Source of the DNA: Elusimicrobium minutum Pei191
Lineage (GTDB): Bacteria > Elusimicrobiota > Elusimicrobia > Elusimicrobiales > Elusimicrobiaceae
DNA length: 64,000 nucleotides
Reading direction: 5' to 3'
Assembly: GCF_000020145.1 (NCBI RefSeq)
Contig: NC_010644.1
Location: 806,001 to 870,000 of the forward strand
The translations under genes and the position numbers were made by a program. The notes under the pieces are model-generated. The model was not told the origin of the DNA, searched no databases, and was given only the letters and a program-made list of their open reading frames with translations. Numbering within the stretch: position 1 is the first letter of the stretch; each line of letters starts with the position of its first letter. This document shows, piece by piece, positions 32,291 through 54,422 of this stretch.

Positions 32291-33406
32291 TTAAATGCGT
32301 TTATTCATCAGTTCAATGCGTTTTAAATAGTATTTCATTGTTTTTTTGTTTTGCTCGTCGGCAAATTCACTGGTTAAACGGCGTATTACGAAGTTTCTGT
32401 CTTCATCAATATGCGTGGTTATTAAGTAAGGAAAAATATTTACTATCTTTACTCCGCCGTCTTTGGATTTTTTTAGCTTAATCTGTAAAAGGGCGCTGTC
32501 ACCCGTATATTGTTTATTTTCGCCGGGGTTGTCATAATTAAGTTTAAAACGCTGCGCGGAAATTAAATTGCCTAAAGAATAAATTGCCATTTTATCGGCG
32601 GTTTGGTCCCAGCCTTGAAAAACGTGCGGATGCGCGCCCCAAACAATATCAATGCCCGCTTTATTAAGTTCTTTAAAATATGTTTTGCGGCTTTCTTTTA
32701 CTTCCAAATCATATTCCGGTTCATAAGTATGCATTGACAAAACAAAAACATCGCAGGGGTTGTCCTCCCGCAGTTTTATTATAGTTTCTTTAAATTTCCT
32801 TCGGCCTTTGGGTGTGGAAGATATTATATCTACCCTTTTGCTTTCATCAACAGTGTTGGAAAATTCTGTAACGGCGGCAAAAAGTATTTTCCATCCGCCG
32901 GTTTCTATTAAAGAGTAAGAAAGGCCGTCTTCTTTTTTAGCGCGTATTCCGGCGGAAAAAATATTATCTTTTTTTCTCTCGGCAAAATACTTATAAGTTT
33001 CCTCAACGCCTTTTTCGCCCTGGTCGTTTGTATGGTTGTTAGCTAAGGAAAATACATTCAGCCCCGCCTGTTGGGCGGCGTCGGCATACTCTTTTTTAAT
33101 ACTGAAGCGGGGATACCCTTTGTAACCTTTTTCCTCATAAATCGGGGTTTCTAAATTAACAAAAGAAAGGTCCGCTTCCTCAAAAATTTCTTTAACGTCT
33201 TTATAAATAAGGCTTAAATCTTTTATTTTTGTATTGGATTTATGCGCCATCAAATCGCCCGCGAAGGTAAGCGTAATATTATCCTTTTGTAAGGCAACAG
33301 GCGCGGCGGGGGGGATTAAAATATCGTTTTTATTTCGCTCAACGCAGGCGGAGATAAAAATAATAAAAACTAAAAAAAACATTTTCTTATACTTAAATAG
33401 GCACAT
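32291..33406 (-). CDS. CapA-family lipoprotein (poly-gamma-glutamate-type metallophosphoesterase fold)
   Basis: About 371 residues from the start at 33406. This start gives a standard lipoprotein signal (MCLFKYKKMFFLVFIIFISAC, lipobox ISAC) and sits seven bases after a TATAAT on the minus strand, so the mRNA may be leaderless. The upstream extension to 33559 overlaps the divergent gene and was rejected. The PGA_cap/CapA family marks are FAGDLMAHKS, VNLETPI, LANNHTNDQG and GAHPHVFQGWD, holding the Asp, His and Asn residues of the binuclear metal site. CapA proteins are linked to poly-gamma-glutamate, but solitary homologs act on other cell-surface substrates, and no PGA synthase is nearby. Confidence 0.85.
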   Translation of the reverse strand: MCLFKYKKMFFLVFIIFISACVERNKNDILIPPAAPVALQKDNITLTFAGDLMAHKSNTKIKDLSLIYKDVKEIFEEADLSFVNLETPIYEEKGYKGYPRFSIKKEYADAAQQAGLNVFSLANNHTNDQGEKGVEETYKYFAERKKDNIFSAGIRAKKEDGLSYSLIETGGWKILFAAVTEFSNTVDESKRVDIISSTPKGRRKFKETIIKLREDNPCDVFVLSMHTYEPEYDLEVKESRKTYFKELNKAGIDIVWGAHPHVFQGWDQTADKMAIYSLGNLISAQRFKLNYDNPGENKQYTGDSALLQIKLKKSKDGGVKIVNIFPYLITTHIDEDRNFVIRRLTSEFADEQNKKTMKYYLKRIELMNKRI

Positions 33407-33413
33407 GTGAAAT

Positions 33414-33419
33414 ATTATA
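33414..33419 (-). promoter_or_regulatory. -10 for leaderless CapA transcript
   Basis: TATAAT on the minus strand ends seven bases before the ATG at 33406; no Shine-Dalgarno. Confidence 0.45.
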
Positions 33420-33457
33420 TAATTTTGTGTAAATAATTTAAGTAAAAGGATGTTTTT

Positions 33458-33820
33458 ATGGAAAAGCATAAGGTTTATCTTATTAAAAAAAGCTCTTTTA
33501 CCGCGGCACATTCTCATGAAGGAATGCTTAATGAAGCCCAGCATACACATACCTTCCATTACGAGATAAAACTTTGCGGATTTACTAACAATGAGGGTTT
33601 TCTTACGGATTTTCGTATAGTGGAAGAGGATATGAATACTCTTATTAATAAAGAATTAAAAGATAAAAACTTAAATATTTTTTTAAAAGATCCTACTACC
33701 GAAAAACTTGCTGTATGGATTTTCCGCCGTTTAAAGGATTCTTATGGAAAAATGCTTCATTGCGTAACTGTTTATGAAACACCCCAATCCGCCGTTATTT
33801 ATGAAGGGGAAGATGAGTAA
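33458..33820 (+). CDS. 6-pyruvoyl-tetrahydropterin synthase-like protein (likely PTPS-III type)
   Basis: A 120-residue T-fold enzyme. It keeps FTAAH (H18), the zinc pair in QHTHTF (H29, H31), DFRIVEEDM in the DF.elk position, DPTTEKLAVWIF (the PTSE segment with the catalytic Glu region) and VTVYETPQSAVIYEGE. The catalytic Cys of QueD/PTPS-II (four residues before the first His of HGH) is absent; a Glu (E26) sits three residues before H29. This is the pattern expected of PTPS-III, which replaces dihydroneopterin aldolase (FolB) in folate synthesis. It overlaps folK by eight bases, which supports that role. Queuosine synthesis (QueD) is the alternative. AAAAGGA precedes the ATG. Confidence 0.78.
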   Translation: MEKHKVYLIKKSSFTAAHSHEGMLNEAQHTHTFHYEIKLCGFTNNEGFLTDFRIVEEDMNTLINKELKDKNLNIFLKDPTTEKLAVWIFRRLKDSYGKMLHCVTVYETPQSAVIYEGEDE

Positions 33821-51452: not shown

Positions 51453-52196
51453 TTAAATTATTTTTTTAAGAATTTGATAAAATACGTCGCAGGCGAATCT
51501 TTCTCTGTAAGGGTAATGCCCGCATTTAGGCAAAATATATTTATCAAATTTAACGCCGTTTTCCTCAAGCGGTTTTACCACACCCAGGTAGGGGTGCGGG
51601 TCATATTCCCCGTGGATTACCGTTATAGGACATTTTATTTTTTTTAATGAAGAAATAAATTTATTTTGATTTCTTAACCCGGAAGCCTCGTTCCATATTT
51701 CATTTAACATTTTTAAATCAAATTTAATTAAAGCGCTTTCTTCTTCAAACGCGTCATAATTATCCGTTTTATCAAAAAATTTATTAATTTTTTCAGCGTC
51801 GCCTCGGGCCAGTATTTCCTGAGAAGTTTGGTATTCTTTATCCGTAAGACGGGCCCTTCTTGTTTTTTCAGCCAGGCTGGAAAATCTTTCCTCAAATGAA
51901 GCTGAGGAAACCAAAATAACCCGCCTTAATTTTTGCGAGTATTTTGCCGCGTATAAAACACAAAGCAACGCGCCCCAGGAATGTCCTAAAAGCGTAATCT
52001 CTTTTTCTTTTAAACAAGTAATATGCCCGTGCAATTCCTCAATAAGTTCATTAATGGAATATTTGGTTTGAATCGGCTCGGCCACGCCGAAATAAGAAGA
52101 TAATTTACCCGCGAAAGCACCCAAAGACCCCAAAGCCCCGGGCCCGCCGTGCACAACAACCGCTTTGTAAGGTTTTTTGCCGTAATAACGTATCAT
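51453..52196 (-). CDS. Alpha/beta hydrolase
   Basis: A 247-residue alpha/beta-hydrolase resembling prolyl-aminopeptidase-type enzymes. HGGPGALGSLG forms the oxyanion region, the nucleophile elbow is LLGHSWGALL (Ser in GHSWG), the acid is in VIHGEYDPHPY and the base His is in LPKCGHYPYRERF. Substrate unknown; an esterase is equally possible. No Shine-Dalgarno; it starts in a 23-bp gap shared with the divergent MFS gene, with TATAAT six bases before the ATG on the minus strand. Confidence 0.82.
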   Translation of the reverse strand: MIRYYGKKPYKAVVVHGGPGALGSLGAFAGKLSSYFGVAEPIQTKYSINELIEELHGHITCLKEKEITLLGHSWGALLCVLYAAKYSQKLRRVILVSSASFEERFSSLAEKTRRARLTDKEYQTSQEILARGDAEKINKFFDKTDNYDAFEEESALIKFDLKMLNEIWNEASGLRNQNKFISSLKKIKCPITVIHGEYDPHPYLGVVKPLEENGVKFDKYILPKCGHYPYRERFACDVFYQILKKII

Positions 52197-52202
52197 TTTT
52201 AA

Positions 52203-52212
52203 ATTATATAAT
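52203..52212. promoter_or_regulatory. Palindromic double -10 for divergent leaderless starts
   Basis: ATTATATAAT (52203-52212) contains TATAAT on both strands: 52207-52212 for the + gene (ATG at 52220) and 52208-52203 for the minus gene (ATG at 52196). Distances are seven and six bases, and neither gene has a Shine-Dalgarno. Confidence 0.5.
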
Positions 52213-52219
52213 AATTAAT

Positions 52220-53393
52220 ATGGCTACTTTACTTCTTATAATCATATACCTTATTTTTATAAGTCTTGGATTACCTGATTCTCTTTTAGGCGTAGCCTGG
52301 CCCAAAATTCATGCGGATTTGGGCGTGCCTATCAGTTACGCGGGCATTACGTCCATGATAATATCAGGCGGCACAATAATATCAAGTTTTGCCAGCGCTA
52401 AAGTAATAAAACGTTTTGGAACAAGCATGGTAACGCTTGTAAGCGTAGCAATGACTGCTGCCGCCATTTTAGGTTTTTCGGCCTCCCCTTCTTTTTTATG
52501 GCTTTGTCTGGCGGCCGCGCCTTTAGGTTTAGGTGCCGGAGCTATAGACGCGGCGCTAAACAACTTTGTAGCAGTTCACTATAAAGCAAACCATATGAGC
52601 TGGCTGCATTCTTTTTGGGGTATAGGCGCTTCTTCAGGCCCGGTAATAATGTCTTTTTTTATAGTTTTAAATAACGGTTGGCGTAAAGGCGCAATTGTGC
52701 TTGCCGCTATACAGTTTAGCATTGTTTTAATTCTTTTAATCTCGCTTCCTTTATGGAAAAAGTTTGCCGCGGCAAAAACGCAAACGCCTACTGAAGAAGA
52801 AGAAACAGAACATAAAAACTCTTTTAAACTCCCCATGATAAAAACAGGTCTTGTGCCATTTTTCTTTTACTGCGCCACGGAAGCTACCGCCGGCCTTTGG
52901 GGCGGCAGTTATTTGGTTACCTATAAAGGTTTATCTGTTGATATGGCGGCAAGGGGCGTCGCGCTTTTTTTTGTGGGTATTACCGCCGGAAGGGCTTTAA
53001 ACGGCTTTGCCACAATAGCTTTAAAAAATTATTCCTTAATACGCATAGGCCAGCTTACCTGTTTAGCGGGCGCAGTTATAACAATGCTGCCGCTGCCGGT
53101 TATTTTTACTTTGGCAGACTTTCTTTTAATAGGACTCGGCTGTGCGCCTATTTACCCATCCATGCTGCATGAGAACACCAAACCGCTTCGGCAAGATTAA
53201 TTCACAGGCTGTTATGGGCCTGCAAATGGGTTTTGCTTATACAGGAACAACTTTTATGCCGCCTTTATTTGGCTTTTTAGCTTCAGATAAGATTTTTCTT
53301 ATGCCGGCGGTAATCGCCGTTTACATCATAATAATGTTTGTTTTTTCAGAAAAGATGAATAGTTTTTTAAAGAAGAATAATAAACTTAGTTAA
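52220..53393 (+). pseudogene. MFS transporter split by a single-base frameshift
   Basis: About 390 residues when restored. The first frame (to the stop at 53198-53200, 326 residues) has the N-terminal MFS half and most of the C-terminal half (SGGTIISSFASAKVIKRFG, GLWGGSYLVTYKG). The second frame (from about 53142) resumes with TPNRFGKINSQAVMGLQMGFAYTGTTFMPPLFGF, a segment typical of FucP/sugar-like MFS ends. Removing one A near 53174-53175 joins the frames (...HE-TPNRF...). This could be a sequencing error, a real null mutation, or phase variation. The start has no ribosome binding site. Substrate unknown. Confidence 0.8.
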
Positions 53394-53430: not shown

Positions 53431-53936
53431 TCAGTTAATAGCGTAAACATTCTTGTTTGTATTAGTTTGCACGCCGTTTAAAACGCCGCCTAAAGATTTG
53501 CAGGCCTGGTTATCAGCCTTATTATTTACACTTGCCCTGCGCATGTGTAAGTGCCTTTCCAGAGGCCTGTGTTTTTATACCAGCTGCTTATAGCAATTCC
53601 CTTATAAGCGGAATGAATGTAACCATCAACGTCAAAACCGTAAACAATATCTTTTGCCGTTCTTATACAGCCGCCGACATGGTAATTAGCGCCGCCGTCA
53701 TCGCATGTGCTAACATAAGGTATTTCAATGTCAATTTGGTCAAAACTTATTGGCCTCTGCCCCGTGGCAAGTTCATACGCGTCGGACGCGGTTCTCAAAG
53801 CTTTAACGTTTATAAACATTTCGCTTGCCCTTGCCTTGGCTACAGACACCTGGTACTGAGGCAAAGCAATCGCCGCCAAAATACCGATAATTAAGACTAC
53901 AACCAAAAGTTCTATCAATGTGAATCCTTTTTTCAT
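53431..53936 (-). pseudogene. Type IV pilin-like gene with a single-base frameshift near its 3' end
   Basis: The N-terminus is standard ([28 protein letters not shown]), and the first frame stops at 53526 after 136 residues (TYTCAGQV). A second frame directly downstream reads ASVNNKADNQACKSLGGVLNGVQ..., with the family's CKSLGG end, to a stop at 53431. Adding one G (one C on +) in the 3-base C tract at 53535-53537 joins the two, giving a normal TYTCAGASVNN...CKSLGG tail. So the last third is displaced by a one-base deletion. A truncated pilin is still encoded and could be expressed. A ribosome binding site (AAAAGG) is present. Confidence 0.75.
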
Positions 53937-53948
53937 ATAAATAACCTT

Positions 53949-54422
53949 TTAATTTAATTCATAAGCGATATATCCGCTAGACATATGGATATAATGACCC
54001 AAAGATTTCCCTCCTAATGATTTACAAAGAGCGGTAGAACTTGCGGAAGCGTCATTTGCTACGCAAAGCAGTTTCCCCGCGAAGGGTGAAACAACATTTT
54101 TGGGGAAGTATCTTATATGTATATAACCGGAATATCCTTTTTTATTTACAGCCCTTATATTTGTTAATGTATTATCCAGTGCAATATCGTAATTAGATGA
54201 TATCGGTATAGTTACATTCAACGCTTCAGGGTCTGTAGGATACACGCCGGTTTCCATATAATAAATTTCAAGCGCGTCTTTTAAAGTTCTTATAGAAGCC
54301 AAAACTTCCGCCGCGCGGGCCTTTTCAACAGTTTTTGTATATTGGGGCAAAGCTATTGCCGCTAGTATGCCTATAATTAAAACTACAACCAAAAGTTCTA
54401 TTAACGTAAACCCTTTTTTCAT
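53949..54422 (-). CDS. Type IV pilin-like protein, intact copy
   Basis: A 157-residue pilin/pseudopilin with [11 protein letters not shown] (processing at G|F) and the same N-helix as the other copies. The globular end has the Cys pair LCVANDAS...LCKSLGGKSLGH and is complete to the stop. It is 12 bases upstream of the frameshifted copy and 11 bases beyond apt on the same strand, so all three may be co-transcribed. GAGGT precedes the ATG. Confidence 0.9.
   Translation of the reverse strand: MKKGFTLIELLVVVLIIGILAAIALPQYTKTVEKARAAEVLASIRTLKDALEIYYMETGVYPTDPEALNVTIPISSNYDIALDNTLTNIRAVNKKGYSGYIHIRYFPKNVVSPFAGKLLCVANDASASSTALCKSLGGKSLGHYIHMSSGYIAYELN

What the first reader, a model, noticed from the sequence alone, without database searches (positions are those of the whole stretch)
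52197..52219. Divergent hydrolase and MFS genes share a palindromic -10 in a 23-base gap
The whole gap between the ATG at 52196 (-) and the ATG at 52220 (+) contains ATTATATAAT, which provides TATAAT on both strands seven and six bases from the respective starts. There is no room for a ribosome binding site on either side. Both transcripts, if real, start at the ATG, and the two promoters overlap and therefore must compete or be bound by the same polymerase holoenzyme in alternative orientation.
Basis: seen in the sequence. Interest (0 to 1): 0.62.

Follow-up and report, generated by a model that had tools for sequence, protein, structure and literature searches.

The report
Two genes sharing one tiny promoter
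Two back-to-back bacterial genes are separated by only 23 bases that seem to serve as one reversible promoter for both, with each messenger RNA starting at its own start codon; similar two-gene mini-promoters turn up in many other bacteria.

Summary
Sequence evidence supports two leaderless mRNAs from overlapping -10 elements. In 361 genes sampled from this genome, TATAAT is concentrated 12 bases before the start codon (13 genes; at most 4 at any other position), and none of 24 such genes (one mismatch allowed) has an SD, against 161 of 337 others. The architecture recurs. A scan of public genomes for CAT-N6-ATTATATAAT-N6-ATG gave 118 sites, 46 with open frames of at least 70 aa on both sides (control 5 of 301), in many phyla. 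In one Elusimicrobiaceae pair (era / M15 peptidase), gaps of 54-60, 45-47, 36, 29 and 22 bp occur, the shared palindrome on a nested branch, so it seems to form by compaction of two outward-facing leaderless promoters. It works like the known symmetric-(-10) bidirectional promoters (TSS spacings 18, 10, 23 bp); new is that both products are leaderless and the promoter is the whole intergenic region. Obligate competition is not supported. The window's MFS gene is frame-broken near 53190. No transcript has been mapped.

The parts
52203..52212 (.). ATTATATAAT palindrome: two -10 hexamers sharing the central TA
52207..52212 (+). TATAAT, predicted -10 for the MFS gene (hexamer starts at -13)
   Evidence: genome-wide signal at -12/-13
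52203..52208 (-). TATAAT, predicted -10 for the hydrolase gene (hexamer starts at -12)
   Evidence: genome-wide signal at -12
52197..52219 (.). whole 23-bp intergenic region, no Shine-Dalgarno word; predicted bidirectional promoter
51453..52196 (-). alpha/beta hydrolase (Abhydrolase_1), predicted leaderless from 52196
52220..53200 (+). MFS transporter ORF, N-terminal and middle part, predicted leaderless; frame broken near 53190-53200
53142..53393 (+). C-terminal part of the MFS gene in another frame

Best explanation
The 23-bp gap is a minimal bidirectional promoter. Two -10 hexamers on opposite strands share their central TA, so the housekeeping RNA polymerase can melt the site and start in either orientation. 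Each start lies 6-7 nt downstream of its hexamer, at or within a base or so of the A of the ATG, so both mRNAs are leaderless and are translated by ribosomes that recognise a 5'-terminal AUG. The upstream half of each promoter lies in the other gene's first codons. Such sites most likely arise when deletions bring two outward-facing leaderless promoters together until their -10s overlap by 2 bp. Shown by sequence: the geometry, the -12 signal with no SD, recurrence, and the graded gap series at an orthologous pair elsewhere. Inferred: transcription and translation at this locus, use of one holoenzyme, and the origin of this particular gap (no orthologous pair was found in relatives).
For: In 361 genes from the window plus 20 stretches of 20 kb, TATAAT starts at -12 in 13 and at -13 in 4; no other position exceeds 4. 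With one mismatch, 24 genes have it at -12; 0 of 24 have an SD-like word against 161 of 337 others. Among 150 matches copied from the listing (more were not listed), the spacer from ATTATATAAT to ATG is 6 nt in 70, 7 nt in 14 and 5-10 for each other length from 2 to 12. CAT-N6-ATTATATAAT-N6-ATG in public genomes: 46 of 118 sites open frames of at least 70 aa on both sides, 5 of 301 for control CAT-N22-ATG. The 6/7 version, as in the window: 8 sites in 242 related genomes, reversed control 0. The window's TSS spacing would be 23-24 bp; 23 bp is a reported common spacing of bidirectional promoters. Era / M15 peptidase: in 23 loci with both genes a TANNNT hexamer lies at -12 or -13 before Era in all and at -11 to -13 before the peptidase in all (exactly -12 in 18 and 19); gaps run from 60 down to 22 bp, and the 22-bp group is nested on the Era tree. 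KdsC / CsgG-like lipoprotein: a 22-bp shared palindrome in 3 of 10 adjacent pairs.
Against: No RNA data. Neither strand has a convincing -35 (best 3/6 and 2/6, typical of background) or TGn. The palindrome is not over-represented genome-wide (12 vs 10). The hydrolase-MFS pair has no conserved counterpart among the 60 genomes searched (own genome included): hydrolase matches in 10, four of them weak; MFS matches in 5, all but its own weak. So the gap's conservation cannot be tested directly. One related hydrolase has an SD-like AAGGA upstream instead (L006). The MFS frame is broken, so its expression may no longer matter. 72 of 118 scan sites lack two long frames. Gene starts came from a crude caller based on codon usage.
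Confidence: 0.76

Rival explanations
1. One or both genes are transcribed from promoters inside the opposite gene, with an AT-rich, SD-free leader; the palindrome is not their -10.
For: About half of the sampled genes lack an SD word (200 of 361), so SD-free starts alone do not prove leaderless mRNAs; AT-rich gaps make TATAAT cheap (1.8% of shuffles contain the palindrome).
Against: The sharp -12 position peak with no SD, the 6-nt spacing peak, the two-sided enrichment and the fixed -12/-13 hexamers at orthologous gaps of different length are not expected.
Confidence: 0.12
2. Only one direction is a working promoter (probably the hydrolase, exact -12 spacing, intact gene); the other hexamer is a by-product of the palindrome and the MFS gene is decaying.
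For: MFS frame broken; -13 spacing is less common than -12; one-sided leaderless genes with a palindrome exist (38 of 118 scan sites have only one long frame).
Against: -13 is the second commonest spacing, and other 6/7 sites have two intact frames (6 of 8).
Confidence: 0.2
3. The palindrome is an operator for a regulator of both genes.
For: It is a perfect 10-bp palindrome between divergent genes.
Against: The same position in single leaderless genes holds only the half TATAAT, not the palindrome (upstream bases listed); the gene pairs that share it are functionally unrelated across phyla.
Confidence: 0.04

Closest known systems
Bacterial bidirectional promoters with symmetrical -10 elements (Warman et al.; PMC12825309, part 1 of 6 read plus passages; PMC10268837, passages)
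   Same: Opposed -10 elements sharing bases; one polymerase position at a time; divergent TSSs 7-25 bp apart, 18 most common, 10 and 23 also common. The window's geometry is the 23-bp kind.
   Different: 'leaderless' does not occur in the main text of either paper. Here both mRNAs are predicted leaderless and the promoter is the entire intergenic region. The 18-bp kind hardly appears here as a two-gene gap: 2 of 30 loci examined.
Leaderless (TA-led) bacterial genes (Zheng et al. 2011, PMC3160421, passages)
   Same: TANNNT about 12 bp before the start codon, no SD; the signal on each side here.
   Different: That survey treats genes singly; its main text has no 'bidirectional' and no 'Elusimicrobi'.
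Mapped divergent leaderless genes in M. tuberculosis, prpD (Rv1130) / Rv1129c (PMC3898074, passages including a figure legend)
   Same: Two adjacent divergent genes whose TSSs map to start codons; closely juxtaposed divergent promoters called common.
   Different: The passages seen do not say that the two share a -10 element.
Back-to-back overlapping promoters in Mesoplasma florum (PMC7745072, passages)
   Same: Overlapping divergent promoters mapped by 5'-RACE; TSS 6-7 bases from the -10; some leaderless mRNAs.
   Different: The passages seen do not show both products leaderless in one gap.

Membership tests
Bidirectional promoter (symmetrical -10) | overlapping -10 elements on opposite strands | tested here: met
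   ATTATATAAT, two TATAAT sharing TA
Bidirectional promoter (symmetrical -10) | divergent TSSs 7-25 bp apart | not testable with these tools
   predicted 23-24 bp from geometry; no RNA data
Bidirectional promoter (symmetrical -10) | RNA made in both directions | not testable with these tools
   needs 5'-end mapping
Leaderless (TA-led) gene | TANNNT about 12 bp before the start codon | tested here: met
   -12 (hydrolase) and -13 (MFS); genome-wide peak at -12
Leaderless (TA-led) gene | no Shine-Dalgarno sequence | tested here: met
   none in the gap; 0 of 24 in the -12 set
Leaderless (TA-led) gene | 5' end at the start codon | not testable with these tools
   no transcript data
Intact MFS transporter gene | uninterrupted frame of family length | tested here: not met
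   326-aa ORF plus C-terminus in another frame; the annotated Metabacillus homologue spans 1218 bases

The most novel reading that the evidence does not exclude
Dual-leaderless shared -10 gaps are a recurrent, multi-phylum class of minimal regulatory unit. Compaction of two outward-facing leaderless promoters stops when the -10s share their TA, leaving 22-23 bp that serve two protein genes with no leader, no SD and no private upstream DNA, and tying their transcription to one polymerase site.
Probability: 0.55. Interest if true: 0.62.

Novelty: new variant of a known kind. Interest (0 to 1): 0.5.

Why it matters
It joins two known phenomena, symmetric bidirectional promoters and leaderless mRNAs, in about the smallest two-gene control region one can imagine, and shows a graded series of how such regions may form. 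It gives a ready-made pattern for finding leaderless pairs in uncultured lineages, and gene pairs in which polymerase orientation choice could be tested as a regulatory step.

Tried and rejected
A conserved hydrolase-MFS pair was sought in 60 genomes and not found outside the window's own. The 18-bp (17-bp gap) class was tested as a second two-gene class: 72 of 242 genomes match, but only 2 of the 30 loci fetched have frames of at least 70 aa on both sides; many are one-sided leaderless genes with a TTTTGCTATAAT-type extended -10. A -35 or TGn element for the window's two promoters was looked for and not found; 7 of the 24 leaderless genes have TGn. Over-representation of the palindrome as a word was rejected. 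Orthologous conservation of the hydrolase promoter was not supported: at least one related hydrolase has an SD-like word (L006).

Limits of the counts. One search listed only part of its matches; one search counts the 150 copied from it. So the 57 two-frame sites in 37 gene pairs hold at least two duplicates and include the window (L192). The Era tree is unrooted; the nesting of the 22-bp group holds unless the root lies in or beside it. In one search the lipoprotein start of L202 was not resolved by the printed output. The KdsC-side hexamers at long gaps, and the 43 sites (11 with exactly ATTATATAAT; reversed-control total 26), were counted by eye from the listings. In one search the 54 of 116 genomes with a match to the M15 peptidase include weak and paralogous matches; 30 loci were fetched and 23 contain both genes in divergent order.

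Full report
WHAT IS THERE. The window lies in a single-contig genome of 1,643,562 bases; the size matches my recollection of Elusimicrobium minutum Pei191, which no call proves. The gap 52197-52219 reads TTTTAAATTATATAATAATTAAT between the ATG of an alpha/beta hydrolase (51453-52196, -) and the ATG of an MFS transporter ORF (52220-53200, +). ATTATATAAT at 52203-52212 supplies TATAAT on both strands, 6 nt and 7 nt from the two ATGs. There is no Shine-Dalgarno (SD) word. Both starts agree with homologues. The MFS gene is broken: its last part lies in another frame (53142-53393), and the two parts match one intact Metabacillus homologue end to end. Whether this is a true frameshift or a sequence error cannot be told here.

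IS IT MORE THAN CHANCE. As a word, the palindrome is ordinary: 12 copies in the genome against 10 of the reversed word, 2 in the window against 0.35 expected. Its placement is not. Genes were called from codon usage alone in the window and 20 spread stretches of 20 kb. Of 361 genes with enough upstream sequence, TATAAT begins at -12 in 13 and at -13 in 4, and never in more than 4 at any other position from -60 to -5. Allowing one mismatch, 24 genes have it at -12. None of these 24 has AGGA/GGAG/GAGG at -20 to -4, against 161 of the other 337. This is the published signature of leaderless genes, a TA-like signal about 12 bp upstream of the start (PMC3160421, passages). The hydrolase is one of the 24; the MFS gene is at -13. 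Of 48 divergent pairs in the sample, three gaps are under 30 bp, and two of these, the window and a 28-bp gap between a mechanosensitive-channel gene and an unassigned gene, carry TATAAT at -12/-13 on both sides.

RELATIVES. Across 92 related genomes, the distance from ATTATATAAT to the next ATG (2-12 nt allowed) is 6 nt in 70 and 7 nt in 14 of the 150 matches copied from the listing; the other lengths have 5-10 each. The symmetric form CAT-N6-AWWWTAWWWT-N6-ATG has 43 sites in 35 of 246 genomes, 11 of them exactly ATTATATAAT (sites counted by eye). Of the 30 loci fetched, 8 have frames of at least 70 aa on both sides, including 5 of the 7 with the exact palindrome. The 6/7 form found in the window has 8 sites in 242 genomes with none for the reversed control, and 6 of the 8 have two frames of at least 70 aa.

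BEYOND THE PHYLUM. Both ATGs open frames of at least 70 aa at 46 of 118 sites (45 at 100 aa), against 5 of 301 (3 at 100 aa) for other CAT-N22-ATG pairs in the same loci. The 46 sites fall in 32 distinct gene pairs. They come from Erysipelotrichaceae and other Bacilli, Gastranaerophilales, Saccharibacteria, Microgenomates-type lineages, Parcubacteria, Peregrinibacteria, Anaerolineae, Elusimicrobia, Aquificales, Sulfurimonas, WOR-3 and mycoplasma relatives (record titles). Of 64 spacers (one site per pair, both sides), none contains an SD-like word, and the base before the ATG is T or C in 85%, as expected before a purine +1 (the +1 preference is recalled). The other 72 sites lack two long frames; some are cut by contig ends and many look like chance.

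HOW IT ARISES. Two divergent pairs were followed by protein search, so that the palindrome was not required. (a) Era GTPase / M15 (D-Ala-D-Ala dipeptidase family) peptidase: 23 loci contain both. A TANNNT hexamer stands at -12 before Era in 18 and at -13 in the other 5, and at -12 before the peptidase in 19 with the other 4 at -11 or -13 (the off-12 cases read by eye). Gaps are 54-60 bp in 14, 45-47 in 4, 36 in 2, 29 in 1 and 22 in 2. At 22 bp the two hexamers fuse into ATTATATAAT. On the Era tree, with one more 22-bp genome added, the 54-60 group is one side of a strongly supported branch (99/96); the 22-bp group (87/95) sits with the 29- and 36-bp rows and one 46-bp row inside the other side. 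(b) KdsC-type phosphatase / CsgG-like lipoprotein: of 30 loci, 10 have the lipoprotein adjacent. Three share the palindrome in a 22-bp gap; four have the palindrome on the lipoprotein side of a longer gap; the remaining three lack the full 10-mer, and in those the lipoprotein still has its hexamer 6 nt from its ATG. The simplest reading is stepwise deletion between two outward-facing leaderless promoters until the -10s share their TA. For the window pair itself no orthologous series exists, so its origin is by analogy.

WHAT IT WORKS LIKE. In E. coli, pseudo-symmetric -10 elements let polymerase bind in two orientations; the most common TSS spacing is 18 bp, with 10 and 23 bp also common (PMC12825309, part 1 of 6 read), and the definition used spans 7-25 bp (PMC10268837, passages). 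The window's geometry, hexamers overlapping by 2 bp, predicts 23-24 bp. The same paper reports that basal activity at all five promoters tested was too low for competition; interference appeared when one direction was strongly activated. The window's two promoters have no recognisable -35 or TGn, so weak basal activity or help from flanking sequence is expected (inference).

WHAT IS NEW. Leaderless genes, bidirectional promoters and divergent pairs with both genes leaderless (M. tuberculosis prpD/Rv1129c, PMC3898074, figure legend) are all in print. I found no paper that describes a shared -10 serving two leaderless genes as the entire intergenic region, but my searches were few and limited to open-licence full text, and the founding 2021 paper on bidirectional promoters was not held. 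I therefore file it as a new variant of a known kind. The 18-bp arrangement, dominant in E. coli, hardly occurs here as a two-gene gap (2 of 30 loci), which is unexplained.

WHAT IS NOT SHOWN. No RNA 5' end, no protein and no promoter activity has been measured at this locus; every transcriptional statement is inference from sequence position.

Noticed in passing
window 53142-53393 and 52220-53200: The MFS gene is split over two frames; both parts match one intact homologue. Pseudogene or sequence error.
   Followed up: partly
window 33404-33423: The window's second ATTATATAAT lies 7 nt before an in-frame ATG (33406, -) inside the longer called ORF 32291-33559; the protein from that ATG begins like a lipoprotein signal, so the true start is probably there and leaderless.
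   Followed up: partly
L001 1494-1523 (a second place in the same genome): A second divergent pair in the same genome (28-bp gap; mechanosensitive-channel gene and an unassigned protein) with TATAAT at -12/-13 on both sides.
   Followed up: partly
L266, L268, L272, L275, L276 and others: Many one-sided leaderless genes in Elusimicrobiaceae carry TTTTGCTATAAT, an extended -10, with a CAT placed by chance upstream.
   Followed up: no
L089, L133, L144, L157: In Gastranaerophilales MAGs the two divergent genes on the shared palindrome are homologous to each other (about 330 aa, one BLAST cluster), as if a duplicated gene had been inverted around its promoter.
   Followed up: no
window 53526-54422: Two tandem genes begin with the same [28 protein letters not shown] pilin-type N-terminus.
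   Followed up: no
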